A stretch of DNA of 54,096 bases. Source: a virus. Location of the stretch: positions 1 to 54,096 of IMG/VR virus record IMGVR_UViG_3300005613_000081; one strand, 5' to 3'. Below the pieces are notes generated by a model that was given only the letters and a program-made list of their open reading frames with translations, made no database searches and was not told the DNA's origin. Shown piece by piece: positions 15,836 to 43,875 of the stretch. How positions within the stretch are numbered: position 1 is the stretch's first letter; each line of letters begins with the position of its first letter. A program made the translations under genes and the position numbers.

Positions 15836-16915
15836 ATGAAAAGGCTTACATATGAATTTGTTAAGGAACAGTTTGAAAAGGAAGGGTATGAGTTATTGAG
15901 TAAGGAATATGTAAATGCTAAAACTAAATTAGAATATAGATGTCCTAAAGGGCATAGGCATAATATTAAATTTAGTGATTGGAGACAAAATAGGAGGTGT
16001 CCTATTTGTTCAAGAGAAAAGGGAGTTGCTAAGAGGCGAGTACCCTTAGAGTTTATTAAAGCATCTTTTAAAGAAGAAGGTTATATTCTTTTAAGCACGG
16101 AATATAAAAATTGTGATTATAAATTAGATTACATTTGTCCGGAAGGGCATAAACACAGTATTTCATGGCATAATTGGAAAAGTGGTTGGCGTTGCCCTTA
16201 TTGTTATGATGAGTTTAGGAGAGGTCAAGCAACTAAAAAGACAATTGAATTTATTAGAGAACAGTTCAAAAATGAAAATTATAAACTTTTGACTGAAAAG
16301 TATGCCGATGCTCATCAGAAATTAGAGTATATTTGTCCTAATGGTCATAAGAGTGATATTAATTGGAATGTTTGGCAACAAGGGCATAGGTGTTTTTATT
16401 GTGCTATTGATAGAACTGCTGATAAAAATAGATTAAATATAGAATTTATAAGAACCGAGTTTGTTAAAGAAAACTATCAGCTTTTAACTAACAAATATAA
16501 AAACGCTCATCAAAAATTAGAGTATGTCTGCCCAGAAGGGCATAAACATAAAATAAGTTGGAGTGATTGGAAACAGGGTAATAGGTGTCCTTATTGTGCT
16601 ATTGTAGCTTCAAAAGGCGAAATCGAAGTAAGAAATTTTATTGAATCTTTAGAAATTAAAGTTTCGCCGAATGATCGAAGCCAAATTTTTAACCCGGAAA
16701 CTAGAAATGGTTTAGAATTAGATATTTTCATACCAGTCCTAAACAAAGCCATCGAATATAATGGTGAATATTGGCATCAAAACAAAAATAAAGATTTGCT
16801 TAAACAGGAATTGTGTAAGTTAAAAAATATAGAATTATTAACGGTGTGGGAGAATGATTGGAAAAAAGAAAAAAATATTTGTGAGAATAAAATAAAAGAA
16901 TTCATATTTAATTAA
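15836..16915 (+). CDS. Free-standing homing-type endonuclease, four zinc modules plus Vsr-like nuclease (copy 1)
   Basis: Four tandem modules of about 65 residues each contain EFI-x-x-x-F, L(L/I)(S/T), then C-P-x-G-H and C-P-x-C; the putative zinc ligands are Cys36/His40/Cys55/Cys58 and equivalents near 101-123, 167-189 and 232-254. The C-terminal domain (about 260-359) has EVRNFIESL, ELDIFIP (Asp296) and AIEYNGEYWH (Glu307, His314), matching Vsr-like/EDxHD or PD-(D/E)XK homing nucleases of phages. Such enzymes cut alleles lacking their gene and spread by repair. It starts 9 bases after the fibre gene with a GGGAGGAAGT site. Two paralogues are at 31088 and 35278. Confidence 0.85.
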   Translation: MKRLTYEFVKEQFEKEGYELLSKEYVNAKTKLEYRCPKGHRHNIKFSDWRQNRRCPICSREKGVAKRRVPLEFIKASFKEEGYILLSTEYKNCDYKLDYICPEGHKHSISWHNWKSGWRCPYCYDEFRRGQATKKTIEFIREQFKNENYKLLTEKYADAHQKLEYICPNGHKSDINWNVWQQGHRCFYCAIDRTADKNRLNIEFIRTEFVKENYQLLTNKYKNAHQKLEYVCPEGHKHKISWSDWKQGNRCPYCAIVASKGEIEVRNFIESLEIKVSPNDRSQIFNPETRNGLELDIFIPVLNKAIEYNGEYWHQNKNKDLLKQELCKLKNIELLTVWENDWKKEKNICENKIKEFIFN

Positions 16916-16930
16916 AGGAGGTTTTTAATT

Positions 16931-18511
16931 ATGGCGAGCGTTACGCGATGGACAAAATACGAAATAGATGCTATCGGATCTGCTGGTGATGGCGATGGGG
17001 AAGGATGTAAAGGTACTAGAGGATACTCAATTGGTACTGCTAGTGTTGGAGATACATTTACTATTGGTCCAACAACGAATAGACTACATCTTGCCATTGA
17101 TGGTGAGGCTGCTTCATATATTACTCTAGTTTCTGGTACTGATTTAGACCCAAGATTTGTAGCTAGAGATATAACGGAAAAATTACATCTTCTTAGTGGC
17201 CAAACTGAAGAATACTGGAGCCATGCTGTTTGTAGATGGGAGAATATACCAGATAAAGGTAATAGATTAAAAATTTATTCTGGTAGTTTAGGTAGTGGTT
17301 CTAGTGTTACTGTATCTAGCGGTACAAACGATGCTAAAACAGTGCTAGGTTTTGGAACTACGTCAGAAGTTGGTGGGTCTGCTACTGGTAATACTTTTGA
17401 TGGTACAGCTTCTGTTTCTGGTACATATTACGGATTTTTCGACGAAATGTATAAAGTAGTGATTGCTTGTGATAATGGTGGTTATGTAAGAGGGGTAGAT
17501 ACTCCTAGTCATACTGGCGGTACTTATGCTGGCACATTAACTACTGGTGGGATGTATAATGCTAGTCAAGATACTACTTATACAATTACGATAGATACTA
17601 CTAATGGTTCTACTATGGGTGCTGGCACTGGTAATGTTCCTCAAATGAGCTGGACTGATACTGGAACTGATACTGAGTCTACTGTTGATACTGAGTTATT
17701 ATATCCAAATTATTGGTATAAGGTAGGGACTAGGGGTCTAATGGTTAAGTTTACAGATGCTGCTTTTAGTAGTGATACTTGGACTGTTGCTTGTTATCAA
17801 CCTGATTATGCTCAGGGTACTAATGCAAGTGCACCGATAGGAGTTGCTAAATATACTTGGTCTTCTGATCGTGGGGATATGAGTAGTTCACCAATTACAA
17901 CAGTGTCTGGTGAGTATACAAGATTAGGGTCTAGAGGGCTGAATATAGAATTTGATGGTACTAATAATTTGTATGCTGGCGATGAGTTTTATGTTATAGT
18001 TGCTGCCCCACTACCATGTGATAAGGGTGAAGAAAGTTCTCATTATGATATTTCAAGTTTAAACTATGGCAATGTCACTGTATCAACAGAATCTGATGTT
18101 AAGTGTGTAATGTTTGAAATTGAAAGTGGCGCTGTTGAGATGAGTACGGTTAAATTTGGATTACAAAGCCATGGAAGTTTTAGTCATCATAACGAAGGTA
18201 ATAGTGATACATATTTTAGATTTGGTACAGTTGGTCCTGATAATACAGCTGGTACTTCTCCAACTAATGGTATTGAGTGGTATCCAGATATAGTGGCTGC
18301 AGATATAGATAGTGATGTTCCACCATCATATTTATATGCCACAGAAGATAATTTATCTGTTGTGGCTACGGCTGATCTTTCTGAAGCTGTTGGTAATTAT
18401 CCTTTATGTGGATTAACTAGTGACCCTCTGTGGTTAAATATTCATTTAGGGGCGAGTGAAACCGGTGCTAATAGTACTATTAATTACCGATGTTACTTTG
18501 ATTATAGTTAA
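16931..18511 (+). CDS. Putative tail fibre or adhesin protein with 'SGS...LGF' module (526 aa)
   Basis: Strong AAAGGAGG site. Residues about 37-157 carry the recurring module: DTFTIGPTTNRLHLAIDG, a YITLVSGTDL turn, a helix-like VARDITEKLH, then NRLKIYSGSLGSGSSV and VLGFG. The rest is Gly/Thr/Ser-rich and beta, with two further similar halves around TYTITIDTTNGS and RGLMVKF / RGLNIEF, suggesting internal duplication. The absence of catalytic motifs and its place between fibre genes favour a structural receptor-binding role. After this gene comes the only clear terminator found in the window. Confidence 0.75.
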   Translation: MASVTRWTKYEIDAIGSAGDGDGEGCKGTRGYSIGTASVGDTFTIGPTTNRLHLAIDGEAASYITLVSGTDLDPRFVARDITEKLHLLSGQTEEYWSHAVCRWENIPDKGNRLKIYSGSLGSGSSVTVSSGTNDAKTVLGFGTTSEVGGSATGNTFDGTASVSGTYYGFFDEMYKVVIACDNGGYVRGVDTPSHTGGTYAGTLTTGGMYNASQDTTYTITIDTTNGSTMGAGTGNVPQMSWTDTGTDTESTVDTELLYPNYWYKVGTRGLMVKFTDAAFSSDTWTVACYQPDYAQGTNASAPIGVAKYTWSSDRGDMSSSPITTVSGEYTRLGSRGLNIEFDGTNNLYAGDEFYVIVAAPLPCDKGEESSHYDISSLNYGNVTVSTESDVKCVMFEIESGAVEMSTVKFGLQSHGSFSHHNEGNSDTYFRFGTVGPDNTAGTSPTNGIEWYPDIVAADIDSDVPPSYLYATEDNLSVVATADLSEAVGNYPLCGLTSDPLWLNIHLGASETGANSTINYRCYFDYS

Positions 18512-18519
18512 TGGGTATT

Positions 18520-18543
18520 TGATTTTATTATATAGTAAAATCA
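18520..18543 (+). other. 8-bp inverted repeat (hairpin) just after the stop at 18511
   Basis: TGATTTTA (18520-18527) and TAAAATCA (18536-18543) are perfect complements around an 8-base loop. A run of A, not T, follows, so it is not a + strand terminator. It may stabilise the 3' end of the upstream message or bind a protein; AT-rich chance pairing is possible. Confidence 0.45.
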
Positions 18544-18580
18544 AAAAAATGGTTTATAATATATTAGATATTATAAATAA

Positions 18581-18609
18581 TTGTAGTATTAGATAAATAA
18601 ATATAAAAT
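18581..18609 (+). promoter_or_regulatory. Candidate sigma70-like promoter
   Basis: TTGTAG (18581-18586), a 17-base spacer, then TAAAAT (18604-18609). It precedes the terminator at 18695 by about 85 bases, so a transcript from here would be about 130 nt. In such AT-rich DNA chance matches are frequent. Confidence 0.3.
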
Positions 18610-18694
18610 ATAGATAATGAGTTTTATAAATAATTAAAAGGAAAAAACGACGATTTAATAGAATTACAGGCAAGGCAGTTTTTTATATAAAGGT

Positions 18695-18746
18695 AAGGAT
18701 AGATTGAATGGGAGTAGTGTCATTTGTCTATCCTTTTTTATTTTTA
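18695..18746 (+). terminator. Rho-independent terminator within the fibre cluster
   Basis: AAGGATAGA (18695-18703) pairs perfectly with TCTATCCTT (18727-18735). Inner AATG/CATT bases can extend the stem, and TTTTTATTTTT follows. It is the only convincing intrinsic terminator I see, and lies between the 526-residue protein gene and the small gene at 18785, splitting the late genes into two transcription units or ending a small RNA. Confidence 0.8.
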
Positions 18747-18784
18747 CAATAAATTTAACGAATTAGGAGAAGGAGGGTTAATAT

Positions 18785-19090
18785 ATGAATAGGTATTGGG
18801 AAGTCCAGTTAAAAGATGGGACTATTATACGTGAAGGACAAATGGAGTGGAGAAAAGTGCCTAAGAGGCATATTACCCGTTTGTCCTTATTTTTTGATCA
18901 TAAAAATTGGAATATTACTGGAAAAGAATCTTATTTTATTAAAAACAGAGCTTCTGTAGTGCCTGGTATCACAGAGTCTTTTAAAATTGAATCTAGGACA
19001 ATAGGTTTTTATGAAGGTGCTAAGAAAGTATGTTATACTGTTGATGAAAATACAGGTAAATTTAGTATGGAGGTTATAGATAATTCATAA
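18785..19090 (+). CDS. Small protein upstream of the giant Cys-rich gene (101 aa)
   Basis: Excellent site GGAGAAGGAGGG before the ATG. The product begins MNRYWEVQLKDGTIIREG, with basic, aromatic strands, and has no Cys-rich or membrane region. The layout (W-x-V-x-L-x-D-G, a Lys-rich middle, C-terminal YTVDENTGKF) looks like a small beta-barrel-type protein; such genes next to large tail proteins are often chaperones or adaptors (inference). Its stop TAA shares a base with the ATG of the 1772-residue gene (18785 stop at 19090), so both are coupled and may be partners. Confidence 0.75.
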   Translation: MNRYWEVQLKDGTIIREGQMEWRKVPKRHITRLSLFFDHKNWNITGKESYFIKNRASVVPGITESFKIESRTIGFYEGAKKVCYTVDENTGKFSMEVIDNS

Positions 19091-22000
19091 TGGTAGCTAC
19101 ACTAACACCAAATGTATGTCAGTATTGGATAACAGATGAACCTGTACAGTGTGAGTATTGGGACGATGTTAATAAGACATGTACTTTTGAACCTTCATCA
19201 GATGGTATTGAGGCTACACGTGCTCCTTATTGTAATAAAATAGGTACGGCTGTTGATTGTAATCATTATAGTGGTACTGGTATTAAGGCTAGATGTATTC
19301 TGCCAGATCCAAGTAGACATGTAGTTAATAGAACAACTGGTAAGAAGTGGGAGATTGATGATATTACTGGTTATAATGATGGTGATTGTGATGGCAGTGG
19401 TACTGATACTACTTGTGCTGGGTATTCGCCGTACCATATGGCTTTTAGTAAATTACAACCTACTTCGGATGAAAGCATAGATGATACTGGATTTTCTACT
19501 ATTGATGAGATTGGTTATAGACTTCCTATGAATTATGAAGTATATAATAAAAGAGCGAAACTAGGTAGATGTTATTGGTGGAAAGATGAGACTACGGATT
19601 TTTATATAGATAATGATCCTTCTAGTTTATCTTATGGTATGGTAATGACTTATATATCTAAATGCACTAATCCAGATGAAGTTACTTTTAAGTATAGGCA
19701 ATACAATTTTGATGAAGATACTGGTACTATAAATCCTCCTTGTAATGGAGCTAACCCAAGTTGTCCTCGTTATACTAGCAATGTTTGTTGGCAGTATTGT
19801 ATTGATGAAAAAATGAGACAGGGTAATAGAGTTTTAGCAGAACAAATTTTAGAATTAAGATATTATATAAAAAAAGATAAATGGACTGAATCTTTATATG
19901 AAAAGTCTTTTAAAGACCCTTATATTTTTGCTGGTACAAAAGCGTGGAAGGAATCATTGTATCAGGAAGAAGATAAATATTTAATAGTAGCAGCTCGTAC
20001 TTATATATCAGATTTTGAAGTATTTGATATTGATTATAATGAATCTCTTTTAACTGATGGTACTTCTGATTCAACATATAAAAAAGAGTACCCTACGTTA
20101 GTTAGAGACTTAAATAACTTTACTTTAACTCCAATTATTAGGAATACATTTGATGAGAATAGTGATGGTAAGTTTGTTTTTGAGGTGCCTAAACTACAAC
20201 ATAAGTATATTAAGATTGTTGGTGATGTTTTTTATTATGGTAGTACTTCTTATGGAGTTAATTTAAGTGATCCTGATTTATATTTTTTACCTCGTGAGTT
20301 ATTATATTTTGATAGTATGTCCGAAATAGAAAATAATTATATAGCGGCTGGTGCTTCGGATGGGTATACTAGTTTTTATAATAATTTAGAATGTTTATTA
20401 GAAAATTTAATTCATTATTGTCCGGATAAAGTAGCTGAGTCAGAAATCACAGGTGAGAACTCTTTTTATATGGATGTGGAGACGTTTTTTGGTAATAATG
20501 ATATTTTTGTTTTTGATAAAGGCAGTGGTGTTTGGGAATATGATAAAATCTCTGTGAAAAAGAATTTATGTAACGGGGTGGTTGGTCAAACTAGTTTTTC
20601 TGTTGATAATAGTGGTGGTACTATAAGTTATTTAGCATCGTATGAGAATAGTTTTTCTGGATTTGTAAATAAATCAGGTGAGGCTACTTTTTGTTTTTTT
20701 CCATTTATGTCAGAGGATGGTGGTGCTCAAGTAGATTATATTTATAATGATGGGGTAAGAAAAAGATTGAATTCTAATTATTCCTCTTTATCTGATATTG
20801 ACACTTATGAAATGTGTTATAAATTATACAAGGTGAAAGTGTTTGATAGATTATCGTTAGATCAGGAGAATTTTAGACTTTTTGGAAACGCTGGGTGGGT
20901 TTTAGTGACTATTCCGGATGGAAATATATTAAGCAATGTTATTAAGCCTTGGGAAGTATCTGGAGATATTACTATAACTGTTGTAGATGCCTTGAACGTA
21001 TCTCATAGTATTAAAATGGAAGTGGTTGATAGAGAATCAAACGTAGAGAAATTAGAGGTTAATCAAATAATAATAAAACCGGAAGATGTTGAAGATTTTA
21101 GACAGCCCTGTAGTGCTAAATTAAATATTGGTCCTATATATAATTATGAGAAGAGTAGTTTTGAAGATTATGAGGGAAGTGAAAGTCGTGAATTAGTAAG
21201 GGAATCCTTTTTAGATGATGATGATGTGATTGATTATAGAGTTGTTACTGAATTAAAAGAAGAGAATGGTCAGTATACTCTTACAAAATTTGGTACTGAG
21301 ACATTAATGATATCTGTTGTTTTTAAAGGGTCTAGTGGTAGACCTAAAGGTCAAATTAAGACCAAAATATTAACGTGGGTTAGACAGCCTTATTGTAGAG
21401 ATGTTGAAATATATTATAAGTGGTATGCTGAATATCAGAAATGTGTTTTATTACCAGAAATGAGGTGTTATGGTACCACAGGTTTAAGATGTGAAATAGG
21501 ATTAAATAAAATTACTATGGTTCCCCCTTGTGGAGATCATGATTTATCCTTGTGGAGTGGTAAAGGTTCTATGTGGTATCCTTATGAAGAATGTGATAGT
21601 GTTGCTAGATGGAATATAGTTGGTAATTTAACTGAATGGGATATTAATATTATGGATTGTTTTTGGGAGGGTGTAGATCCGCCGCACGGTTCTTGGGATA
21701 TGCGTATGTTAGGTCCAGACCAAGAAGAAGCTCGTACATGTGGTACACATGCTCAGTTATGGGCTTGTACTTGTGATTGGAGTTTTTGTAATTATAATAA
21801 AGTAACAGAAAATATATTTTGTGGTACAGGTATGTATAGAGGTGGTATAGATGGGGATGATTACTATAGGTGCATAAGAAATGATGGTGATGCACCTAAA
21901 TTTGGAAATGTTATAAGAGATTTTCTAAGAAGTTTTAGGTCTATAGATAATATAGATTATTATTATTTTGATGGTAGGTCTTTTTATAGAAATAGAAAAT

Positions 22001-24408: not shown

Positions 24409-24424
24409 TAGAGGAAGGAAATAA

Positions 24425-27400
24425 ATGTCATATAATTTTTTAAGAGATGCCAGACATATACAAAACTCATTTTTATGTAAATATGATAGTTTAGATGGGT
24501 ATGCTTCTGATTTCCATATAAATGGAAATGTAGACGGGTGGGATGTCTATAATAATATTTATTTATATGGTTGTTGGGGTAGTGTGCTTTTTGGTACTAG
24601 TTACGATAGAGATTGTTATATAAGTAGGTCCAATGTTTTTGAATATGTTGAAGCTGAAAGTTATTATTATATTAAACTTATGATGAAAGTTACTAATAAT
24701 AATAGTGGTAAAGTTGTTCAGGGGCTTACTACTGGTAGGATAAGATGGATAACGATTACCGATTCTACTTGGGATGAAGACAAACAATTAGATTTTGATA
24801 TAATAGCTGACGATAAATGGCGTTTGTATACAATAAACATGGGACCTGAGCAGTTATGGCAGGGAGATGTTAATAATTTAAGAATTTATCCTTTTATTGA
24901 TGGATGGGAAGGGGATGAGTTTGCTATTAAATTTATTAAAGTATCTTCTTTAAATAATTGGTCATGTTCAAATACACAATGCTCATATTATACTCAGTAT
25001 AATCATCCATGTGCTGGAGCTGGGAGTAGAGGAAGTTGTGAAGCTGGTATAGATAAATCTTCTTATACTACTGTATCTGGAGTTAGTGATAATCTTATAA
25101 TTAATATAGATGGGTATGGTGATGAAGAGTTTTCATTAGGAAATAATGTAAATGTTACTGGTATAGAAATGGCTAGGATTATAGGAGATAAAGTATCTAC
25201 TGTAGGAATTGGTGGGTATGCGTTTGTTGATGTAGAATACCTAGAAACTAATAAACTGAAAATAAAATCTGGTAGTATTGGATCAGATAGTTATGTAGAA
25301 GTTAAATATTCAACAGCATCTGAGGCTTTGGGATTTTATGATAATGGTATTAATGTATCTAATCATACTAGTGGGCTAGATCCAGCTGATAAATTTGATT
25401 ATACTTCGTCTAGATTACTACAATCATTTGAAATTAATAAATTAATAGATGGTGATAAAGAAAATGTAGCTTATATACATAACCCTAATCAATATAATGT
25501 TGAGGGTGGTAGAAAGGATTTTAATGAAATTGGAGTTTCTAAATTAATTTCAGAAATAGGTGGTGTTGATTACTATGAATCTCTTGGTAATAATAATAAA
25601 ACTTTAATAGACTTATCACATCCTATTAATAATAATGGTAGAATTAAAGCTATTTATTTGTATGGTAGAATATCTACTTTGTCTAAAGTTAAAATATGTA
25701 GGCCTAAGAAGGACGGTACTTTGGAAGTTGTTTGTAGTTTGGATTTACCATTAGAAGATGACAGTAAATTATATACTTATCTTCCGATTAATTATAGGTT
25801 AGATTGTAGTGTTTTGGTTAATAAAGGCGATTTAATTGGTATTTATAATGCTGATTTATATGTTGGTTTGACACTAAGAGGATATCCAGATGCTAGTTTT
25901 TACCATGTTAGTGGTGAAGTTAGTGGTACATTTGATCCTGGTAAAGTGTATTCGTTTGGTGTGGCTGGATTTGCTATATATGCTAGAGGAGATAGATATC
26001 AAAATAATTTATTATTAGATATAGATTTTGGTAATAGGATTAATATAGAGGAAGTTAATTTGTATGGTGAGGAAAACGCTGAATATTTAGAATTTAATAT
26101 AGCTTCTTGTTTAGATGTTAGTTGGCAGGTGGATTTATTTAGTGAATCTCATTATCATAGTGGCACTAATTGGTTAAACGGTGATCCTTGGACTGATGTT
26201 CACCAAAATATAGCTTATGGCGAAGATTGTTTGGATGATTGTATAGTTACTGCTGATAACGGTCAAGCTGGAGATACTTATGGTAATGATTCTAATGGAT
26301 TATGGACATCCGGAGACCATTCATATTTTTATGTAAATGGTGATGCTGAATGGTTATATTCAGATGAATGTACTGGTAAGACTGAATATTGTTGGCCTTA
26401 CGTTCCTGGGTCTGCTTTAGGTATAAGAACTGAAAGGGTGGGTGGTTTTACTTATGACCCTATAGCATTTACATTAATTTTTCCTCACGGGTTTAGAACT
26501 AGTATTCACAAAAGTATAATGTATTTTAAAGAGAGGGATAATTTTAGAAGTGTAGCTTTATCTTATTATTTAGGGCCCTATAATTTTACTGGTGATGCTG
26601 ATACCACATCCTTCAAATTGATACCAAGTTATAATTCAATTGGTTTAGATGGGTCTTTATATACTTATGAAAATAGTGGGGAAATTAGAGATTATATATT
26701 TAAAAATCCAACTAATCAAAGAATTATATATGCTAATGGTGCAGCTTCAAATTGGCGGGAATACCAAGCAGCTTTATGGGCTGATTGGGTTATACTAGAA
26801 CATAATTTCGATCCAGTAGAGTGTTATGGTTTTAGGATATATACTGATCATCATTATAGTACAAAAATAATGGAGTTAGAGGTTTATAGTAAAATAGAAA
26901 CTGATCCGTCTCTTTTAGATAATATTAGTTTATCTTTTTCGGATTATGATGATATTTGGAAAACAGCTAGTTTTGTTGAGGAATCATCTAATAAAGTCTC
27001 TGCTTTTATAGGAGGTTCTCCAAGGTATGTTTCTATAGAAATAGAATCTGCAAATGAATTTAGTGTTAACGAAATTGAATTTTTAGTCGGTGACCAATTA
27101 AAATTAGAGAGTTGTGAAGATACAATATTACTTAGTGAATCTGGGATAAATAAAGTAAATAAAGCCATGTCTATTGGTATAGAAAATATTTATGATATAC
27201 CATTGGATTTAACTGTTGATATACCAAAAGAAATATCTGATACAGATGGTATTATATTTTGGAGTAAGCTAGGATCTCAAGATGAGATTGATAATCCTGA
27301 AATAGGCCCTGGGTGTATATTACACAAAAATGATGATTATGATATACGAAATGATAATTGTCAATGTGCCATTAATATTCCGTGCTACGGTTTAAAAAAT

Positions 27401-30400
27401 TTAGTTGATGGTAAAGAATCTTATGTATTTGAAAATGAATATAGTTGGTATTATTATGGTACATTGAGTAGTGGTACTTCTGTAGATTATTGTAATTCTG
27501 AAGCTGGGCATAGAAAAGATATAGTTTTTGACGCAGTTTCTAGTAAATATTGGAAAGTAAGCGGATATTATCCAGAAGATTATGTTATTTCAAATGTTGA
27601 TGCTTTTTATAATGGAAACTCTGTGAATATAATTAGTACATTATCTGGTACAATGACATATGAATCGCCTTTTTTTATAGAGTTAGAAAGTAATGAACCT
27701 TTGGATACTATTATATTATATGCTACTGGTGATCTTACTTTACCATCTATTTTTTTGAGTGTTGATAATATTACTTATGGTTTGTGGGCTAGAGATATAG
27801 GTTCTACTAGTGATGCTACTGAGATTGATGGTACATGTGATTCTAAAGATTGTTATGATGATGATTGTGATTATTTTGGCTGCAGAAAGGCTTTTAATAA
27901 TGATGAAAGTGATTATTATCATTCAAAAGCAGGAGATGCTTTAGATCCCGAAAAATGGTTAGGGTACGATTTTGGTGAGGAAGTAGTAATTCAAAGAGTT
28001 AGATTTAAACAGTATAGTGCTACTGGTCATTACTTAAAAAATTATATTGTGGAAGGTACTACTGATGCTAATGCTGATTGGGATTCTAGATCTTGGACTA
28101 CATTAGCTAATGGTACTGGATCTATGGGTTGGAATGATATTACATTTAGTAATAGTACTGGATATAAGGCAATTAGAGTTAGAGGAGATTCACATTCGCC
28201 ATATTATTTTGTTGTTAAGGAAATGGAAATGTATGGCAGTGTTTTAGATAGTCCAAACAATCTGTCATTAAACATTTATGATTATTATAAATATTTTGTT
28301 ATAGATTTGGAAAGAAGGCATAATTTAGATATAATTAGAAATTATGGTGATGATACTAATAAATTATTTATAAGTACTAATGTTGTTACTGATTTTTCTA
28401 ATAGTATGACATCTAATGTAGATGATGTTATATGGAATAATAGTACTAATGAGGATGTTAGGTGGTTGAGGATCAAGATTTTATGTGAGGAAAGTAATAC
28501 TAAATGTTTGAGAAAGTTGGGTATTTATTCAGATATTTCTCAAGCTTATTGTATTGGCGGTGGATATAACTGTGAATGGGAATCTTTAGGTACTATTTTG
28601 TCATCATACCCAGCTCCGATAAATATTGCTTATGGTGCCACTGTTACTGGTACTAATTATTGGTTTAGAAATTATTATCCAGATAATGCTGTAGATGGTA
28701 TTTATGATAGTTATAAAACTGAAGATAGTTGGGGATTTCAAAAAGTTGATGGTATTGATCCATATTTAGAGATAGATTTTGATGATATTTATACAATTAA
28801 TAAAATAAAATTATACCATGGACATAATCCTAAAGATACTACATATATAAATAAAGATTATACACTCAGTGTATTAACAACTGTTTCTGGTATTTTTGAG
28901 GAAGTGCTAAGTGTAACTAGTAATGATGAGTATGAAGTAACACATCAATTTGATCCTGTTGATGCTCAGATTGTAAGATTGACAATTACTGATTATGATT
29001 CTAGTAGATATTTAGTTTATAACGAATCTACCCAAAGATATGAAGAATTTAAAGGTAGTTTTTTAAGAGAAGTGGAGATTTATACTTATGTAGATGAGGG
29101 GTATGTAGATAGTGAAACATGGCCTGTTGTGTGTATGAACTTGAAGGACCAGTTTAATATTATTGATCATGAATTAATTAATAAGGACATTACTGATTCT
29201 GATACTGATTGGGATAACAATGAAGATTTTTTTAAGTATTCCGATAATATTTGGAGTGATCCAGAAAAGGTTTCTTTTACTGAAGGTGGTGAATATGTAA
29301 CATCCTACGTAAGCGATGATAATTCAGGTGATGTAAGAGGATCTACTGAATATTTGTTTGATACAAATGTTTATTTTGAAGAGGGTAGGTATAATATTGA
29401 GTGGAGTGCTTATAAAGCTGTTTATAATGAAGAAATAAGTTTGAGGTTAGAGGGTAACAATGTTATAGATAGTTTTGCTGATGTTTTGTATGATGGATGG
29501 TCAGGTCAAAAAAGTATTATAGATATTTCTGAAAGTGGTTTTTATGATATAAAAGGTGTTCAGCATATAAGTCCTGAGTATAGGTGGGGGACGAAAGATC
29601 CGTATATATATAGATCTAGTGGTTATGTTAAATGGGTATCTGTAAAGAGAGATACTGCTGAAAATTATTCTTATGATGATGATTCGGATAAATATGGTAA
29701 GGATTATTTGTCATTATTTAAGGTTTTTGGCGATACTAAATATAATCCTTCAGAGTATAGTTGGTGGTGGTCATCAACTTTAAGTAGTTTAGATAATGAT
29801 GGGTTTAATGTACAAGTTGGGTCTCGTTCACTGAAAATTAGTTATCCAACATCATCTGGTACTGATATTGTTTCTTTTATAGAAGGTGATGATTTTGGCG
29901 AGGATATTTATTATTCGCCTGAGGATGCATTATCTTTTTGGTGGTATATTAGTGATGTGAGTAAATTAGATGTGGTTTTTGGAGATGTATCTTTTGGTAT
30001 TATAAATGGTGAAGAACCTATTTATTATAAATGGTATATTAATAGTTTATCTTTAACATCTAATTGGAATTATATTAGATTAAAGTTTAATGAATATGAT
30101 ATTGTTAGTCCTTCTACTGATTTATATAGTATGTATAGTTTTTTAGACGAAAAGTTAGATTTTCGTACAAACGGTAAAAGTTTTACTTCTTTTAAAATTA
30201 GATATAGAGGCAAAGGTCAATCATTTATTATGAATATCGATAGTTTAAAAATAGAAAGAAATAAATTTTTAGATTTTGTAAAATTTGAAAATGGATTATG
30301 CTTGACTAATGACGATTTTTTAGAAACGCCAATTTCTAATTTAAGTTTAAGAAAAGGGTCTATAGAGTTTTATCTGAAATTATATTATGATTCTTATGGT

Positions 30401-31075
30401 AGAGATATTTTTGGTAAAATGAAATCTAGAACTTTATTTACTCTTACTAATAATAATAATAATATAATAGCTTTAAATGTAAAAAGTGGTAATTGGTTTG
30501 AACCAGTAGTTGGTCAGATTAGAAAAAATTTAAATTTATTAAATATAGATGTAGATAATTTGTCTACTTCTAGTTTTTTAGATATTGGATCTGTAGTTCA
30601 TATTGCTTTAGTTTGGGATAATAGTGGTAGTTATATGGACGATAGAAGTACTATAAGATTTTATATTAATAATGAGTTGATAGTTAATTCTAGCATCACT
30701 TGGGATGTAGATAGTTCTAATAATGTTAATTTTAGACTTGGTGGTATAAACACTGAAATGGCTGGTAATAGGGATTTTTGGGGGTCTGGGATTTTTGAAA
30801 ATTTAAAGATATATAATTATCCAAAAACATCTTTTGATATAAATAACCAAAGTGTTGATAAAGATGTTGTTTATTTACCGAATGATTTTGTGGAGATATC
30901 TGATAATAATATTGATTTTTATGGTATAAATTCTGAAAATTTACCATTAGTGTTTCAACAGGTTTCTCCAAATAAAAGTCGCACAATTTATATTAGGTCT
31001 AATAAAGATAATACTTTTAAACAAACTAATATTAAGACGGGTACAGTTATTGTTGATTGGTTAGTTAGTGTGTAA
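24425..31075 (+). CDS. Giant multi-lectin tail fibre protein (2216 aa)
   Basis: A modular protein. Residues about 20-180: a CBM-like beta sandwich ending in WRLYTINMGPEQLWQGDVNN and LRIYPF. About 221-310: the 'SGS...LGF' module. About 1134-1269: F5/8 type C domain (FGCRKAFNNDES, KWLGYDFGE, VRFKQY, VVKEMEMYG). About 1399-1555: a second discoidin domain (NIAYGATVTGTNYW, NAVDGIYDS, IKLYHGHN, REVEIYTY). About 1976-2135: LamG/concanavalin-type sandwich (RKGSIEFYLKLYY, VVHIALVWDN, IRFYINNELIVNS, GIFENLKIYNYP). These are glycan-binding folds, so receptor recognition is the likely role. Site AGAGGAAGGAAATAA. A homing endonuclease follows 12 bases after its stop. Confidence 0.85.
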   Translation: MSYNFLRDARHIQNSFLCKYDSLDGYASDFHINGNVDGWDVYNNIYLYGCWGSVLFGTSYDRDCYISRSNVFEYVEAESYYYIKLMMKVTNNNSGKVVQGLTTGRIRWITITDSTWDEDKQLDFDIIADDKWRLYTINMGPEQLWQGDVNNLRIYPFIDGWEGDEFAIKFIKVSSLNNWSCSNTQCSYYTQYNHPCAGAGSRGSCEAGIDKSSYTTVSGVSDNLIINIDGYGDEEFSLGNNVNVTGIEMARIIGDKVSTVGIGGYAFVDVEYLETNKLKIKSGSIGSDSYVEVKYSTASEALGFYDNGINVSNHTSGLDPADKFDYTSSRLLQSFEINKLIDGDKENVAYIHNPNQYNVEGGRKDFNEIGVSKLISEIGGVDYYESLGNNNKTLIDLSHPINNNGRIKAIYLYGRISTLSKVKICRPKKDGTLEVVCSLDLPLEDDSKLYTYLPINYRLDCSVLVNKGDLIGIYNADLYVGLTLRGYPDASFYHVSGEVSGTFDPGKVYSFGVAGFAIYARGDRYQNNLLLDIDFGNRINIEEVNLYGEENAEYLEFNIASCLDVSWQVDLFSESHYHSGTNWLNGDPWTDVHQNIAYGEDCLDDCIVTADNGQAGDTYGNDSNGLWTSGDHSYFYVNGDAEWLYSDECTGKTEYCWPYVPGSALGIRTERVGGFTYDPIAFTLIFPHGFRTSIHKSIMYFKERDNFRSVALSYYLGPYNFTGDADTTSFKLIPSYNSIGLDGSLYTYENSGEIRDYIFKNPTNQRIIYANGAASNWREYQAALWADWVILEHNFDPVECYGFRIYTDHHYSTKIMELEVYSKIETDPSLLDNISLSFSDYDDIWKTASFVEESSNKVSAFIGGSPRYVSIEIESANEFSVNEIEFLVGDQLKLESCEDTILLSESGINKVNKAMSIGIENIYDIPLDLTVDIPKEISDTDGIIFWSKLGSQDEIDNPEIGPGCILHKNDDYDIRNDNCQCAINIPCYGLKNLVDGKESYVFENEYSWYYYGTLSSGTSVDYCNSEAGHRKDIVFDAVSSKYWKVSGYYPEDYVISNVDAFYNGNSVNIISTLSGTMTYESPFFIELESNEPLDTIILYATGDLTLPSIFLSVDNITYGLWARDIGSTSDATEIDGTCDSKDCYDDDCDYFGCRKAFNNDESDYYHSKAGDALDPEKWLGYDFGEEVVIQRVRFKQYSATGHYLKNYIVEGTTDANADWDSRSWTTLANGTGSMGWNDITFSNSTGYKAIRVRGDSHSPYYFVVKEMEMYGSVLDSPNNLSLNIYDYYKYFVIDLERRHNLDIIRNYGDDTNKLFISTNVVTDFSNSMTSNVDDVIWNNSTNEDVRWLRIKILCEESNTKCLRKLGIYSDISQAYCIGGGYNCEWESLGTILSSYPAPINIAYGATVTGTNYWFRNYYPDNAVDGIYDSYKTEDSWGFQKVDGIDPYLEIDFDDIYTINKIKLYHGHNPKDTTYINKDYTLSVLTTVSGIFEEVLSVTSNDEYEVTHQFDPVDAQIVRLTITDYDSSRYLVYNESTQRYEEFKGSFLREVEIYTYVDEGYVDSETWPVVCMNLKDQFNIIDHELINKDITDSDTDWDNNEDFFKYSDNIWSDPEKVSFTEGGEYVTSYVSDDNSGDVRGSTEYLFDTNVYFEEGRYNIEWSAYKAVYNEEISLRLEGNNVIDSFADVLYDGWSGQKSIIDISESGFYDIKGVQHISPEYRWGTKDPYIYRSSGYVKWVSVKRDTAENYSYDDDSDKYGKDYLSLFKVFGDTKYNPSEYSWWWSSTLSSLDNDGFNVQVGSRSLKISYPTSSGTDIVSFIEGDDFGEDIYYSPEDALSFWWYISDVSKLDVVFGDVSFGIINGEEPIYYKWYINSLSLTSNWNYIRLKFNEYDIVSPSTDLYSMYSFLDEKLDFRTNGKSFTSFKIRYRGKGQSFIMNIDSLKIERNKFLDFVKFENGLCLTNDDFLETPISNLSLRKGSIEFYLKLYYDSYGRDIFGKMKSRTLFTLTNNNNNIIALNVKSGNWFEPVVGQIRKNLNLLNIDVDNLSTSSFLDIGSVVHIALVWDNSGSYMDDRSTIRFYINNELIVNSSITWDVDSSNNVNFRLGGINTEMAGNRDFWGSGIFENLKIYNYPKTSFDINNQSVDKDVVYLPNDFVEISDNNIDFYGINSENLPLVFQQVSPNKSRTIYIRSNKDNTFKQTNIKTGTVIVDWLVSV

Positions 31076-31087
31076 AGAGTGGATATT

Positions 31088-32125
31088 ATGGTTAAAAAGA
31101 TTACATATGAATTTGTAAAAGAACAATTTGAGAAAGAAAAGTATAAGTTATTAAGCAAAGAATACATTAATGCTCATACAAAATTGGAATATGTTTGCCC
31201 TCAAGGACACAGGCATAGTATTATTTGGAATAGTTGGCAGCGAGGACATAGATGCCCTTTTTGTGTTGGACTCGGTAAGCCTTCTATAGAATTTATTAAA
31301 TCTGAATTTGAAAAAGAAGGATATCAACTTTTAACAGATAGATATATAAATAGCAGACAAAAATTAGTTTACATTTGTCCAGAGGGTCATAAGCATAATA
31401 TTACATGGTCTTCTTGGTGGTTTCAGAAATGTAGATGCCCATATTGTGTTGGAAAGGCTAAGCCGATTACTGAATTTATCAGGTCGGAATTTAAAAAAGA
31501 GGGTTATGAATTATTAACTAAGGAATATGTGAATAGTAGGCAAAAGTTAGATTATATCTGTCCTAATGGGCATAAACATGATATTTCATGGCATGATTGG
31601 CAACAGGGCCGACGCTGTTATTATTGTTTTGGTAATATAAAACCGCCTATAGAATTTATTAAATCTGAGTTTGCTAAAGAGGGTTATATTCTTTTAATTA
31701 CTGAGTATGTAAATAGTCAGCAGAAATTAGATTATATTTGTCCTAGAGGGCACAAGCATAATATTAGTTGGAATAGATGGAAACGAGGGCAAAGATGCCC
31801 ATATTGTATTGGGAGAATTTCTAATGAAGAGGTAGAAGTAAGAAATTTTATTGAATCTTTGGGCATTAAAATTTCACCAAACGATAGGAAACAAATATTT
31901 AATCCATATACTGGGAATGGGTTTGAATTAGATATTTTCATGTTAGATTTTGATAAAGCTGTGGAATATAATGGGACTTATTGGCATAAAGATGAGGGTA
32001 GGGACTTACTCAAACAGCAGCTTTGTAGAGCAAAAGGAATAGATTTATTAACTATTTGGGATAAGGAATGGTTAAATGATAATGATAAATGTAAAGATAA
32101 AATAACAGAATTTATATTTAATTGA
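31088..32125 (+). CDS. Free-standing homing-type endonuclease (copy 2)
   Basis: Paralogue of the 15836 product: four CP-x-GH...CP-x-C modules (C-terminal pairs CPFC, CPYC, CYYC, CPYC), then EVRNFIESL, ELDIFM, KAVEYNGTYWH and the closing LLTIWDKEW. Asp and Glu/His of the presumed nuclease site are kept, so the enzyme is probably active. A GTG at 31079 is in frame, but ATG at 31088 fits the AAAGAG site and gives MVKKITYEFVKEQF, aligning with MKRLTYEFVKEQF of copy 1. It sits between two giant fibre genes (24425 and 32153), each of which could be its homing target neighbourhood. Confidence 0.85.
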   Translation: MVKKITYEFVKEQFEKEKYKLLSKEYINAHTKLEYVCPQGHRHSIIWNSWQRGHRCPFCVGLGKPSIEFIKSEFEKEGYQLLTDRYINSRQKLVYICPEGHKHNITWSSWWFQKCRCPYCVGKAKPITEFIRSEFKKEGYELLTKEYVNSRQKLDYICPNGHKHDISWHDWQQGRRCYYCFGNIKPPIEFIKSEFAKEGYILLITEYVNSQQKLDYICPRGHKHNISWNRWKRGQRCPYCIGRISNEEVEVRNFIESLGIKISPNDRKQIFNPYTGNGFELDIFMLDFDKAVEYNGTYWHKDEGRDLLKQQLCRAKGIDLLTIWDKEWLNDNDKCKDKITEFIFN

Positions 32126-32152
32126 ATAATGAAATAAAAAGGGGTTTAATAA

Positions 32153-35100
32153 ATGGCAAAATACAATTTGATTCGAAATGGAAGTCTCCAACCACTTTTA
32201 GTAAGTGGCACTGGCAATAGGAATTTAAGCTGGCTTCAATTAGAAAGTTTAATGGATGGGACAACTACTTCAGGAGGAGTTACTTTAACATCTGATGATG
32301 TTTTGTATTTGGAAGCTGATATGTCCAATCGGGTTAAATTAGATTCAGTAAGACTTTATGCTAGTGATTTAACTAAATCATCCAACATTAATTTTTATTA
32401 TAAAAACTATGATAGTGATAATTATACTTTGTGTTCTAAAAGTGTGGGTGATTACTATTATCCCACATTACCAAGTCCACAAGCTCCTAGGTTTATTTTA
32501 ACTACTATTTCAGGTATTAGTATACAAATATATGAATACATGATAATTAACAATGATACTATAGTGGCTTATGGGGAAGACGGTAGTGAATATGCTAAAT
32601 ATCTGGATGATTGCCCTGTTGGTGAAACAGGCGATGCTACAACTGTATCAATTTATAATAATTCTACAAACGCTATGCCTGCAAATGCTTATGTGTGTGT
32701 GGATTGGACAGATGATGAGGCTGATAATTATGTGAAAATATCATCGAGTGAAAATGGTACTTATTATGGTATTGAAGATGGTATATTAGTTGAGGATAAT
32801 AATGAATCATCAACTTATATGTGGGATATGGGTGAGTATAGTAATATGGAGGTTTCTGGTGACAGTGTTGTTATAAGCTCAATTGCGGATGGTTTAGTTA
32901 TAAAAATGTTGGATGAGTTGCCTTTAATAGATAATTCCAATGCATTTGGTACAGGAAGTAACACATGGGATTATGATAGTGTTAATAAAAAAATGTATGT
33001 TATTGGTAGGGATTCTTCAACGTTAAAATTATGGGAATATAATTATAGTGATGATGAGTGGGACTATATAGGAGAGATAGATAGTGTTGGCAGTGATAGT
33101 GACGCTAATTTTCCAGTAATGTCTTATTGTTCTGTATCTGGTACTAATAGGATATATGTAATGACTAAATTTGATGGCACGTTCGGTTATTATGACTTAG
33201 ATGGTATTCAAGATAATTGGACTACGTGTGTTAATCCAAATTGGAGCTTTAGTTTAGATTCAAGTGACAGAGTTTCTATGTGTAGTGATGGCGTAAAATA
33301 TATATATGCTTTAACTTCTGAATATGGGGAAGATTTTAATGATAGAAATTTCAAAAGGTTTGATACTATATCTGGTACATGGACTACTTTGAGTGGATCA
33401 TACCGTCAATATCCATATGAAAGTGGAAGTGGAAGTTATTATCCAAATAGAACTTGTATGACTTATGATAAAGACAGAGATTATATTTATTTGGCACAAG
33501 GTTCTGAGGGACATGCCACTAATAATTATATACAAAAATATGTTGTGGATTCTAATGTGTGGAATAATCAATATATAGATGTTGATGAATTAACAGGATA
33601 CGAGTCAAATATATTTTATTCAATATCATATTGTAATAATTATTTGTATTTAAGTTGTGACGAAAACTGGGAGTCTTATTTTTATTCGTACAATCTATCC
33701 ACAGCTGAGGTCGAAAAAATTTATTTGGGATACAAACATGAAACTGTAAATCAAAATGGGCCAAGTTGTTATATATTAGCTATTAATCCTTCTGATAGTG
33801 GTAATAGTGTATATTTTGCACAAATTGATGATTATAGTGAATATTTAATTTCCTATGGGGTTGTATTTAGTAGTGTTGGTATTTATACATCTCCAATTTT
33901 TTATTTTGAAGATGTTGATAGCGTAAGTTATTTTATAACTGATGGTACTACTGAAAGTGGTAGTAATAGTATAAGCTATAATGAGAATGTATATAATGGT
34001 ACTATTAGAGTGAGAAGTAGTAATACTACTCCTTTAACTATTGATGAAGTTTATTGGGGAATAGAAACATCTAGTAGTGATGTGTATATAAAAAATGCTG
34101 TTATATACAATGGTGATTTTAGTGATTTGGTTAGTGTGGGCAGTAATTATTGGACACCTTTATTTATAGCAGTTGATAAAAGAACTGGTTATATTTATTT
34201 TGCTTATACTTATTATTATAACTGGAACAATAAGGGTGCTGGATTTTATGTATATGATTATAATGGTACTTTAATATATGATATAGGAGGAGGCTTTTAT
34301 TATAACGAATCTGTTATTACTAATGTTGAAATAGATAAGTTTGGTAATATTTGGTGTTATGCAGTATCTGCTAAAACCTTATTTCATAGAGATGCTTCAA
34401 ATGATAGTAGTTTGTATTCATATAATGATGGTACTGATTTTCTTTACGATTTGGCTGTTGAGATGGGTGGTACTGGTGTATGGTATACTGATAAGTTAAA
34501 TGATTTAATAGTTCATTTAGATACAGATGGTAATGTTTTGCATCAATTACCATCAAATGAACCTAGAGCTATTTGTGGTACTACAGATAATGGTTGTTGG
34601 ATTACTGATAATACTGATGAAAAGGCATATAAGTATAGTTCTACTGGTACCTTGTTGCAAACAGTAGATATTGGGAGAACAGCTACTCGTATGTGTAGTG
34701 ATATGGTGGATGGTTTTTGGTATATTAGTAGTGACCATGTTTATCATGTTGACAGTAATGGTACTGAAGATGTAGATGTTTCTGTTGGTAATGTTTCCAG
34801 AATTAAAGGTGGGTATAATGGGTGTGTTGTATGGCCTAGCGATAATGATTGGGTAAAATATATAAATAATAATGGAAATATTACTAGGACTTTTACAATA
34901 CCCGGTATAACTAATACAGCTTGTCCAGCATTATTTTCTTTTAGACATGAAGATTTTGTCGAATTTCAAGATACTGCCAACTTAATTCCAGTTAGTTATG
35001 ATCCTATTTGGGGAACAGGTGGATCTCTTGAATGGAAAGAAGTTAGAAAAGATGGATATTTTTTACCAAAAGTTAGATATCACCAAACTGAAACAACTTT

Positions 35101-35281
35101 GAGATGTGAAAGTTATAGTAGTCCTTCTTTGGATAAAATAATTGTTCCAAGATCTATCAAGGTTCAAGATATTGCCAAACAATCAAGTAAAAATATTTAT
35201 ATAAAAACTGTTATACCTCATGATGCGTCGATTCAAGATTATTCTGCTTGCCTTAAAGCTTGGTGGGGATGTGAAGTATGA
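32153..35281 (+). CDS. Beta-propeller tail fibre protein (1042 aa)
   Basis: Residues 1-110 resemble a discoidin-like sandwich (SLMDGTTTSGG, LEADMSNRVKLDSVRLYAS). About 265-560 is Kelch-like, with repeated W-D-Y / Y-V-I-G / L-W-x-Y blades (KKMYVIGRDSSTLKLWEYN, NRIYVMTKFDGTFGYYDL, KYIYALTSE, DYIYLAQG). About 670-930 is an NHL-like second propeller (AVDKRTGYIYFAY, VEIDKFGNIWCYAV, VWYTDKLNDLIVHLDTDGNV, GCWITDNTDEKAYKYSSTG). The C-terminal segment SKNIYIKTVIP, ending WWGCEV, resembles the TIYIRSN...VDW end of the 24425 protein. Glycan or protein binding at the tail tip is likely. Site AAAAAGGGG. The stop overlaps the next start by four bases. Confidence 0.8.
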   Translation: MAKYNLIRNGSLQPLLVSGTGNRNLSWLQLESLMDGTTTSGGVTLTSDDVLYLEADMSNRVKLDSVRLYASDLTKSSNINFYYKNYDSDNYTLCSKSVGDYYYPTLPSPQAPRFILTTISGISIQIYEYMIINNDTIVAYGEDGSEYAKYLDDCPVGETGDATTVSIYNNSTNAMPANAYVCVDWTDDEADNYVKISSSENGTYYGIEDGILVEDNNESSTYMWDMGEYSNMEVSGDSVVISSIADGLVIKMLDELPLIDNSNAFGTGSNTWDYDSVNKKMYVIGRDSSTLKLWEYNYSDDEWDYIGEIDSVGSDSDANFPVMSYCSVSGTNRIYVMTKFDGTFGYYDLDGIQDNWTTCVNPNWSFSLDSSDRVSMCSDGVKYIYALTSEYGEDFNDRNFKRFDTISGTWTTLSGSYRQYPYESGSGSYYPNRTCMTYDKDRDYIYLAQGSEGHATNNYIQKYVVDSNVWNNQYIDVDELTGYESNIFYSISYCNNYLYLSCDENWESYFYSYNLSTAEVEKIYLGYKHETVNQNGPSCYILAINPSDSGNSVYFAQIDDYSEYLISYGVVFSSVGIYTSPIFYFEDVDSVSYFITDGTTESGSNSISYNENVYNGTIRVRSSNTTPLTIDEVYWGIETSSSDVYIKNAVIYNGDFSDLVSVGSNYWTPLFIAVDKRTGYIYFAYTYYYNWNNKGAGFYVYDYNGTLIYDIGGGFYYNESVITNVEIDKFGNIWCYAVSAKTLFHRDASNDSSLYSYNDGTDFLYDLAVEMGGTGVWYTDKLNDLIVHLDTDGNVLHQLPSNEPRAICGTTDNGCWITDNTDEKAYKYSSTGTLLQTVDIGRTATRMCSDMVDGFWYISSDHVYHVDSNGTEDVDVSVGNVSRIKGGYNGCVVWPSDNDWVKYINNNGNITRTFTIPGITNTACPALFSFRHEDFVEFQDTANLIPVSYDPIWGTGGSLEWKEVRKDGYFLPKVRYHQTETTLRCESYSSPSLDKIIVPRSIKVQDIAKQSSKNIYIKTVIPHDASIQDYSACLKAWWGCEV

Positions 35282-36309
35282 AAAGAAAAAGATACACAAT
35301 AAATGATGTTAGAGAAGCTTTTGAAAAAGAAGGATATCAACTTCTTACCAAGGAATATGTAAATAGTAAGCAAAAGTTAGATTATATTTGCCCAAAAGGA
35401 CATAGACATAGTGTTAGGCGGACTAGTTGGCAACAAGGACATAGATGTCCTTATTGTGATGGCCAAGGTAAACCGACCATTGAATTTATTAGATCGGAGT
35501 TTGCTAAGGAAGGATATATTCTTTTAACAGATAAATATATTAATACAAAATCCAAATTAGATTATATTTGCCCCAAAGGTCATAAACATAGTATTTGTTG
35601 GGCAAATTGGCAACAAGGACAACGATGTTATTATTGTAAGCATAACGTGCCTACTATAGAATTTATTAAGAAACAGTTTGAAAAAGAAAATTATAAACTT
35701 TTAACTGTTGAATATAAAAATTGTTATCAAAAATTAGATTATATTTGTTTAAATGGGCACAAGCATAGTATTTGTTGGAATGACTGGAAAAATGGAAATA
35801 GGTGCCCTTATTGTGCTGGTCAGGGTAAGCCAACTATAGAATTTATTAAGTCGGAATTTGCTAAGGAAGGTTATAGACTTTTAACTACTGAATATAAAAA
35901 TGCTCATCGAAAATTAAGTTATATTTGTTCAAAGTGGCATAAACATAATACTAGTTGGAATAATTGGCAGCGTGGAAAAAGATGTCCGTATTGTGCTGGT
36001 AATATTTCAAAGGGAGAAATAGAGGTAAGAAATTTCATCAAATCCTTAGGAATTGAAGTTTCATCTAATGATAGGAGCCAGATATTCAATCCAGAAACTG
36101 GCTATGGATTTGAACTAGATATTTTTATGCCATATCTTAATAAAGCTGTAGAGTATAACGGTGAATACTGGCATCAGGATAAAACTAGAGATTTACTTAA
36201 ACAACAACTTTGTGAATCGAAAAACATTGATTTGTTAACTATTTGGGATAGAGGGTGGGAGACTAATAGTGAAAAGTGCAAGAAAAAAATAATTGAATTT
36301 ATATTTTAG
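35278..36309 (+). CDS. Free-standing homing-type endonuclease (copy 3)
   Basis: Third paralogue with four zinc modules and a C-terminal EVRNFIKSL, ELDIFMPYLNKAVEYNGEYWH nuclease block. In modules 3 and 4 the CP-x-GH motif has drifted to CLNGH and CSKWH, but the Cys and His survive. The ATG at 35278 overlaps the fibre stop (ATGA at 35278-35281), so the fibre reading frame ends exactly at the nuclease start. Either a precise insertion supplied a new stop or the fibre end was trimmed. Translation is probably coupled to the fibre message; no separate strong binding site is visible. The presumed active-site residues are intact. Confidence 0.85.
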   Translation: MKRKRYTINDVREAFEKEGYQLLTKEYVNSKQKLDYICPKGHRHSVRRTSWQQGHRCPYCDGQGKPTIEFIRSEFAKEGYILLTDKYINTKSKLDYICPKGHKHSICWANWQQGQRCYYCKHNVPTIEFIKKQFEKENYKLLTVEYKNCYQKLDYICLNGHKHSICWNDWKNGNRCPYCAGQGKPTIEFIKSEFAKEGYRLLTTEYKNAHRKLSYICSKWHKHNTSWNNWQRGKRCPYCAGNISKGEIEVRNFIKSLGIEVSSNDRSQIFNPETGYGFELDIFMPYLNKAVEYNGEYWHQDKTRDLLKQQLCESKNIDLLTIWDRGWETNSEKCKKKIIEFIF

Positions 36310-36408
36310 TAAAAAGTAAGATTTAAGGGAATTATATTAAAGGGTTTAGAAAAACTTGGTGGGGAATTAATAGTTAATTAAATAGGAGTGGTATTATTAT
36401 AAATACTA

Positions 36409-43691: not shown

Positions 43692-43875
43692 TAAAATTGT
43701 GTGTAAACATGAAAATTGGGCATTGGCTGGATATCCTTATGAAATAGATGGTGAAGGAATTGTGAGAGTATCTAGTATATATGAAGTGTATTGTAAAGAT
43801 TGTAAAAATTTTGTAAATCTTCTTAGTAAAGAAATTATAAATGATAAAGGACTGTTAAAAATTGGAGGACTATAA
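43681..43875 (+). CDS. Small Cys-containing protein (64 aa)
   Basis: Residues C8-H10 (VCKHENW) and C38-x-x-C41 (YCKDCKNF) form a plausible zinc-ribbon set. It overlaps the previous gene end by 11 bases and its own stop shares a base with the RecA start (TAATG). A DNA- or protein-binding adaptor to RecA is a guess from context only. Confidence 0.65.
   Translation: MKSNKIVCKHENWALAGYPYEIDGEGIVRVSSIYEVYCKDCKNFVNLLSKEIINDKGLLKIGGL

What the first reader, a model, noticed from the sequence alone, without database searches (positions are those of the whole stretch)
15836..36309. Three four-zinc-module homing endonucleases colonise the fibre cluster
Paralogues at 15836, 31088 and 35278 each carry four CPxGH...CPxC modules and an intact ELDIF/EYNGxYWH nuclease block, and each follows a fibre gene directly. 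Three active-looking family members in 21 kb, with recently exchanged fibre cassettes around them, suggest that endonuclease-driven conversion contributes to fibre diversity. Repeated modules may give programmable-like, tunable DNA recognition.
Basis: partly seen in the sequence, partly recalled or inferred. Interest (0 to 1): 0.7.

Follow-up and report, generated by a model that had tools for sequence, protein, structure and literature searches.

The report
Three homing endonuclease genes among fibres
A phage carries three related selfish DNA-cutting genes squeezed between its host-binding fibre genes; they belong to a known family that sits beside many kinds of phage genes, and relatives show the same slot empty, scarred, or filled by a version with a different cutting domain, but nothing shows that these genes drive fibre diversity.

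Summary
Three intact paralogues (15836-16915, 31088-32125, 35278-36309; 59-61% identical) each carry four CapR-type zinc modules and a C-terminal nuclease whose nearest solved structure is homing endonuclease I-Bth0305I (EDxHD, Vsr-like). They are free-standing, Hef-like homing endonuclease genes (PHROG 559), a known kind; Campylobacter phages hold about ten each. All three junctions were found without an intact endonuclease in relatives. At site 1, 6 of 32 phages carry one and 26 do not; a near-isogenic pair (99.4-99.8% flanks) shows an intact gene beside a 109-bp deletion scar. E3 appears to have landed inside the 3' end of its neighbour, whose displaced end lies downstream. The fibre-diversity claim is not supported: relatives sit beside capsid, terminase, polymerase, helicase and exonuclease genes; fibre architecture does not track endonuclease presence; no co-conversion signature is seen. 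One extra result: at site 1 the N-terminal module pair of E1 (EDxHD nuclease) forms a clade (99/86) with those of three HNH-nuclease endonucleases in the same slot, suggesting that DNA-binding modules stayed with the site while the nuclease was swapped. Class replacement and domain shuffling are already published (Barth 2023): a new member of a known kind.

The parts
15836..16915 (+). E1: free-standing homing endonuclease gene, 359 aa, four CapR modules + EDxHD/Vsr-like nuclease (site 1)
   Evidence: ORF intact; CapR x4; phrog_559 E 5e-79; relatives lack it at the same junction
15848..16009 (+). E1 module 1 (CPKGH...CPIC)
   Evidence: module HMM
16046..16204 (+). E1 module 2 (CPEGH...CPYC; D24, H42, W48 shared with same-site HNH endonucleases)
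16241..16402 (+). E1 module 3 (CPNGH...CFYC)
16436..16597 (+). E1 module 4 (CPEGH...CPYC)
16604..16912 (+). E1 nuclease domain, ELDIF...EYNGEYWH; nearest solved structure I-Bth0305I (3r3p)
31088..32125 (+). E2: same architecture, 345 aa (GTG start at 31079 also possible) (site 2)
   Evidence: no endonuclease at this junction in four relatives
31103..31807 (+). E2 modules 1-4
31808..32122 (+). E2 nuclease domain
35278..36309 (+). E3: same architecture, 343 aa; start codon overlaps the stop of 32153-35281 (ATGA) (site 3)
   Evidence: no endonuclease at this junction in three relatives
35296..35994 (+). E3 modules 1-4 (modules 3 and 4 deviate: CLNGH, CSKWH)
35998..36306 (+). E3 nuclease domain
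35259..35269 (+). Left copy of 11-bp repeat CTTGGTGGGGA, in the WWG codons at the 3' end of gene 32153-35281
   Evidence: two exact copies in the window, 0.01 expected
36351..36377 (+). Displaced 3' end of the upstream gene (reads KTWWGINS*) holding the right copy of the repeat (36355-36365), left downstream of E3
   Evidence: alignment to the homologous 3' end in G007; 2 of 1000 shuffles reach its score
14399..15826 (+). Fibre A: window-specific discoidin-like domain + Ser-rich linker fused to a conserved 200-aa C-terminal part; left flank of E1
16931..18511 (+). Fibre B: conserved right flank of E1, used to survey site 1 in 32 phages
24425..31075 (+). Large tail/fibre gene, left flank of E2 (F5/8 type C and laminin-G-like domains)
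32153..35281 (+). Fibre gene between E2 and E3
36409..40113 (+). Fibre gene after E3: two discoidin-like copies, Ser-rich linkers, conserved C-terminal part from residue ~776

Best explanation
E1, E2 and E3 are free-standing, Hef-like homing endonuclease genes. In each protein four independently folded CapR-type treble-clef zinc modules grip a long DNA site near the insertion junction, and a C-terminal EDxHD (Vsr/I-Bth0305I-like) nuclease cuts alleles that lack the gene. During co-infection, recombination repair with the endonuclease-bearing copy as template (the window has a UvsX-like recombinase at 43875) copies the gene across. The genes occupy short junctions between co-directional genes, where insertion does little harm, and are later lost by deletion. 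Shown here by sequence: architecture, fold relationship, conserved catalytic block, selection on protein sequence, junctions without the gene, deletion scars, scattered presence. Inferred: DNA cleavage, the recognition sites and homing itself. Fibre genes are hosts of convenience; the same family uses many other conserved junctions. At site 1 the two N-terminal modules probably carry the site-specific recognition, and the nuclease was exchanged between HNH and EDxHD types (this last step is the least certain).
For: Family: CapR x4, phrog_559/681/3339 endonucleases, Hef-annotated relatives, about 10-12 places per listed Campylobacter phage. Nuclease: 3r3p I-Bth0305I catalytic domain is the only meaningful PDB sequence match (E 5e-8) and the top fold match (Foldseek probability 1.00, E 2e-3 to 4e-3, TM about 0.7). 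Third codon positions differ about twice as often as first or second between the copies (147-157 vs 75-94). Junctions without the gene: site 1 in 26 of 32 phages, site 2 in four, site 3 in three. L059/L087: 99.76% and 99.36% identical flanks, intact HNH-type gene against a 109-bp scar keeping its two ends; L010 and L074 scars. Site 2 is filled by an HNH-type gene in L150. E3: an 11-bp repeat flanks it and the displaced 3' end of its neighbour lies downstream. Same-site module clade across nuclease types 99/86; module 2 p = 0.011 against random quartets.
Against: No cleavage or homing assay; no target site mapped. No co-infecting partner or co-conversion tract identified. Presence on the fibre B tree is scattered but about as scattered as random labels (6 changes, shuffled mean 6.4), so gain and loss cannot be separated. 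Same-site module sharing holds for four of six site-1 genes (not L006 or L008) and shows no such signal at site 2; module 1 alone is not significant (p = 0.23). E1's module pair is also close to an endonuclease at another site (L051, 91/82). The E3 repeat was noticed after the fact, and the alignment of the spacer to the window's own gene end alone is not significant under shuffling (152 of 1000).
Confidence: 0.85

Rival explanations
1. Endonuclease-driven co-conversion is a main source of fibre diversity in this phage group: the endonucleases carry neighbouring fibre segments between phages (a fibre HEG island).
For: Three copies in the fibre cluster; a discoidin/Ser cassette is copied between the gene left of E1 and the gene right of E3; HEG islands with >90% identical cargo are described in other phages, tail operons included (PMC10448857); co-conversion is an established by-product of homing (PMC2988022).
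Against: Fibre A architecture varies as much without an endonuclease (204-988 aa; p = 0.15) and endonuclease-positive pairs are not more alike than expected (p = 0.23). Window against L008: 75-79% DNA identity on both sides in the longer matches, with no near-identical tract; fibre A next to E1 is the most diverged of the near flanks (60% against 78% and 85%). The genes around the sites also vary in phages with no endonuclease there.
Confidence: 0.1
2. The proteins are domesticated: the modules act as DNA-binding regulators of late tail operons (as CapR regulates ICP1 capsid genes), with the nuclease retained by accident.
For: CapR itself is a repressor derived from such modules (PMC10448857); the genes are in line in a probable late operon.
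Against: The catalytic block is invariant in E1-E3 and their relatives; presence is sporadic and the genes are deleted in close relatives.
Confidence: 0.04
3. A rival to the nuclease-swap part only: different endonuclease classes invaded the same junction independently, and the shared module pair at site 1 is convergence or general repeat similarity rather than retained recognition modules.
For: L006 and L008 at site 1 and L150 at site 2 show no same-site module signal; class replacement at a shared position is published; only 114 columns in the tree.
Against: Clade 99/86 for E1, L007, L009, L059; L007 and L009 module 2 each have E1 module 2 as best match among the modules compared; rare residues D24, H42, W48 shared.
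Confidence: 0.4

Closest known systems
Hef-like phage homing endonucleases (phage U5 Hef; Campylobacter Fletchervirus Hef copies; PHROG 559)
   Same: Repeated zinc modules plus the same C-terminal nuclease block; free-standing, several copies per genome, gene junctions; Hef has reported endonuclease activity (PMC3322345; PMC2988022)
   Different: Only about 27-33% identical; many Hef proteins are longer; here at tail-fibre junctions rather than nrdA/nrdB
I-Bth0305I (EDxHD family, PDB 3r3p)
   Same: Catalytic domain by sequence profile and fold
   Different: Listed as a mobile intron protein and with another DNA-binding part; the sequence alignment covers only the second half of the domain
CapR/DUF723 multi-zinc-finger HEGs of ICP1-like and other phages (Barth, Dunham and Seed 2023)
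   Same: Tandem CapR-type modules, domain shuffling, HEGs of other classes replacing each other at one position, HNH to PD-(D/E)XK included
   Different: Those whose zinc modules were surveyed carry T5orf172 (GIY-YIG) nucleases; here HNH and EDxHD nucleases share modules at one site
T4 free-standing HEGs (Seg, Mob)
   Same: Intronless homing between genes, scattered presence
   Different: Unrelated nuclease and DNA-binding domains

Membership tests
Hef-like homing endonucleases (PHROG 559) | Sequence match to the family profile | tested here: met
   E 5e-79, 7e-74, 5e-57 for E1-E3
Hef-like homing endonucleases (PHROG 559) | Free-standing gene absent from the same junction in relatives | tested here: met
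   no intron or other RNA family in the window
Hef-like homing endonucleases (PHROG 559) | Site-specific DNA cleavage near own locus | not testable with these tools
   Needs protein and substrate DNA
EDxHD (I-Bth0305I-like) nuclease | Vsr-like fold with conserved acidic residues and W-H motif | tested here: met
   Fold match 3r3p probability 1.00; invariant E262, D296, E307, N309, G310, near-invariant W313-H314
EDxHD (I-Bth0305I-like) nuclease | Each named catalytic residue of EDxHD aligned one to one | tested here: inconclusive
   Sequence alignment covers only the second half
CapR-domain proteins | Pfam CapR PF21817 above curated cut-off | tested here: met
   46-57 bits against 24.2
CapR-domain proteins | Zinc binding | not testable with these tools
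   Ligand pattern C-x3-H...C-x2-C is kept
HEG island with mobilised cargo | Bracketed genes far more similar between phages than the surroundings | tested here: not met
   Window against L008, the only close relative: about 75-79% on both sides; L008 covers only the start of the bracketed stretch

The most novel reading that the evidence does not exclude
At a fixed junction the DNA-recognition pair of zinc modules is inherited by site, while the catalytic domain is replaced by the type resident in each phage genome (HNH or EDxHD), so one recognition unit has been used by two unrelated nucleases in nature; extra modules and the nuclease are exchangeable cassettes.
Probability: 0.45. Interest if true: 0.6.

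Novelty: new member of a known kind. Interest (0 to 1): 0.4.

Why it matters
The system gives a natural experiment for a module-based DNA-recognition code: one junction, six intact endonucleases with 2, 3 or 4 modules and two nuclease types, 26 phages without an intact gene, three recognisable scars and one near-isogenic pair. If modules 1-2 set the site, the residues that read DNA can be found by comparison (positions 24, 42 and 48 of module 2 are first candidates). It also corrects a tempting story: presence between fibre genes alone is no evidence that homing drives host-range change.

Tried and rejected
Fibre-specific association: rejected, since relatives follow core genes; three of three in the fibre half of a 54-kb fragment has a chance probability of about 0.1 (26 of 54 kb, my estimate). 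Fibre diversity linked to endonuclease presence: no. Same-site module sharing at site 2 (E2 against L150): no signal. Displaced gene ends at E1 and E2 as at E3: none found. A decayed endonuclease in the 273-bp spacer 18512-18784, where relatives carry another endonuclease: only short uncertain matches. phmmer of E1 against PDB without a profile found nothing. Group I intron or other RNA context: none.

Full report
Observation. The window is a 54,096-bp virus record. Three co-directional ORFs at 15836, 31088 and 35278 encode 359, 345 and 343 aa, 59-61% identical over their length. Each holds four modules of about 54 aa with C-x3-H and C-x2-C, matched by Pfam CapR in four stretches, and a C-terminal block ELDIF...EYNGxYWH. 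Some modules deviate from the CPxGH...CPxC wording (E3: CLNGH, CSKWH), but ligand positions are kept. No frame is broken, and third codon positions vary about twice as much as first and second, as expected for proteins under selection.

Identity. PHROG 559, 681 and 3339 (HNH/homing endonucleases) match strongly. The annotated phage collection holds 454 records with a match, many named Hef-like homing endonuclease, with about 10-12 places in most of the listed Campylobacter phages, among them next to end-protector, thymidylate synthase and tail sheath genes. Despite the PHROG name, E1-E3 show no HNH domain. A profile of 25 nuclease domains finds one convincing PDB chain, I-Bth0305I (E 5e-8), and AlphaFold models of the whole protein (mean pLDDT 85, four alpha-beta-beta-alpha beads, low pTM of 0.37 as expected of loosely linked beads) and of the nuclease alone (pLDDT 90.5, pTM 0.81) both find 3r3p first, with Foldseek probability 1.00, TM about 0.7 and modest E-values of 2e-3 to 4e-3. 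I-Bth0305I is the type of the EDxHD homing endonucleases, long multi-domain proteins with targets near 60 bp (PMC3943268).

The junctions. Fibre B (16931-18511) was used to survey site 1: 32 distinct phages, six with an intact endonuclease and 26 without. The six are window (4 modules, EDxHD), L008 (3, EDxHD), L006 (3, HNH), L007, L009 and L059 (2, HNH). L059 and L087 are almost identical (99.76% over 5.3 kb upstream, 99.36% over 2.8 kb downstream), but L087 keeps only the first ~30 bp and the last part of the gene in a 109-bp spacer; L074 and L010 hold similar scars with HNH-type ends. At site 2 four relatives have only a short spacer of about 10-21 bp between the flanking genes, while L150 carries a 3-module HNH gene there. 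At site 3 three relatives have no endonuclease, and different genes follow. Downstream of E3 the spacer contains what looks like the old 3' end of the upstream gene (KTWWGINS*), with an exact 11-bp repeat CTTGGTGGGGA on both sides of E3 that occurs nowhere else in the window. I infer that E3 entered at or near these conserved WWG codons and that the gene end was restored upstream.

Modules and nucleases. A tree of the first two modules of 66 endonucleases puts E1 with L007, L009 and L059 (99/86), all at site 1, although E1 has an EDxHD and the others an HNH nuclease. Module 2 carries the signal: mean pairwise identity 60.0 against 50.0 for random quartets (p = 0.011), with D24, H42 and W48 shared and rare elsewhere; module 1 does not reach significance (p = 0.23). 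L006 and L008, at the same site, do not join the clade, and site 2 shows nothing of the kind. By eye the HNH domains of G004 resemble each other, as do those of G003; I did not test that with a tree. Nuclease class also differs among endonucleases at two further recurrent junctions (Cas4/RecB-like exonuclease before glycosyltransferase; clusters 5/6). The reading that modules follow the site and the nuclease follows the genome is therefore a hypothesis supported at one site.

Fibre diversity. The family is not fibre-bound. Among 79 genes lying directly upstream of relatives (the window's own and site-1 flanks included), profiles of exonuclease (5), DNA polymerase (3), major capsid protein (3), terminase (2), DnaB helicase (2) and baseplate wedge (2) match. 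Fibre A is 205-475 aa long with an endonuclease and 204-988 without (p = 0.15); endonuclease-positive pairs are not unusually alike in fibre A (p = 0.23). Against L008 the DNA identity is about 75-79% on both sides, without a near-identical tract, and the flank next to E1 is more diverged than the genes on either side of it.

Known work. Barth, Dunham and Seed (2023) describe tandem CapR-type zinc domains in phage HEGs, recombination between repeats, domain swapping between HEGs, HEG islands, and replacement of an HNH by a PD-(D/E)XK HEG in a tail operon (PMC10448857). Hef cuts near its own locus and targets the same gene as MobE (PMC2988022; PMC3322345). So kind, architecture and swapping are known; the same-site sharing of modules by two nuclease classes adds to it. 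Verdict: new member of a known kind, interest 0.4.

Noticed in passing
window 40954-41481: A fourth, unrelated homing endonuclease (HNH_3 + NUMOD4, 175 aa) overlaps the end of a gene with thymidylate synthase-like matches (40304-40957).
   Followed up: partly
window 14399-15826 and 36409-40113: A discoidin-like domain and Ser-rich linker present in three copies in this genome and in no other fetched locus; the closest relative L008 has only the 205-aa C-terminal part of fibre A.
   Followed up: yes
window 18512-18784: 273-bp AT-rich spacer after fibre B, where relatives L006-L010, L060 and L067 carry another endonuclease-like gene; a decayed copy is possible but matches are short.
   Followed up: partly
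L049 (G004) 38000-57000: Dense mobile content: split Hef-like pieces, HNH endonucleases with different DNA-binding parts, apparent intein-like and transposase-like ORFs.
   Followed up: no
L004 1-4000: Major-capsid-like gene pieces separated by a LAGLIDADG-like and a CapR + PD-(D/E)XK ORF with a long C-terminal extension.
   Followed up: no
window 834-998: A short tandem repeat, 84 bp at 90% identity, inside the first ORF.
   Followed up: no
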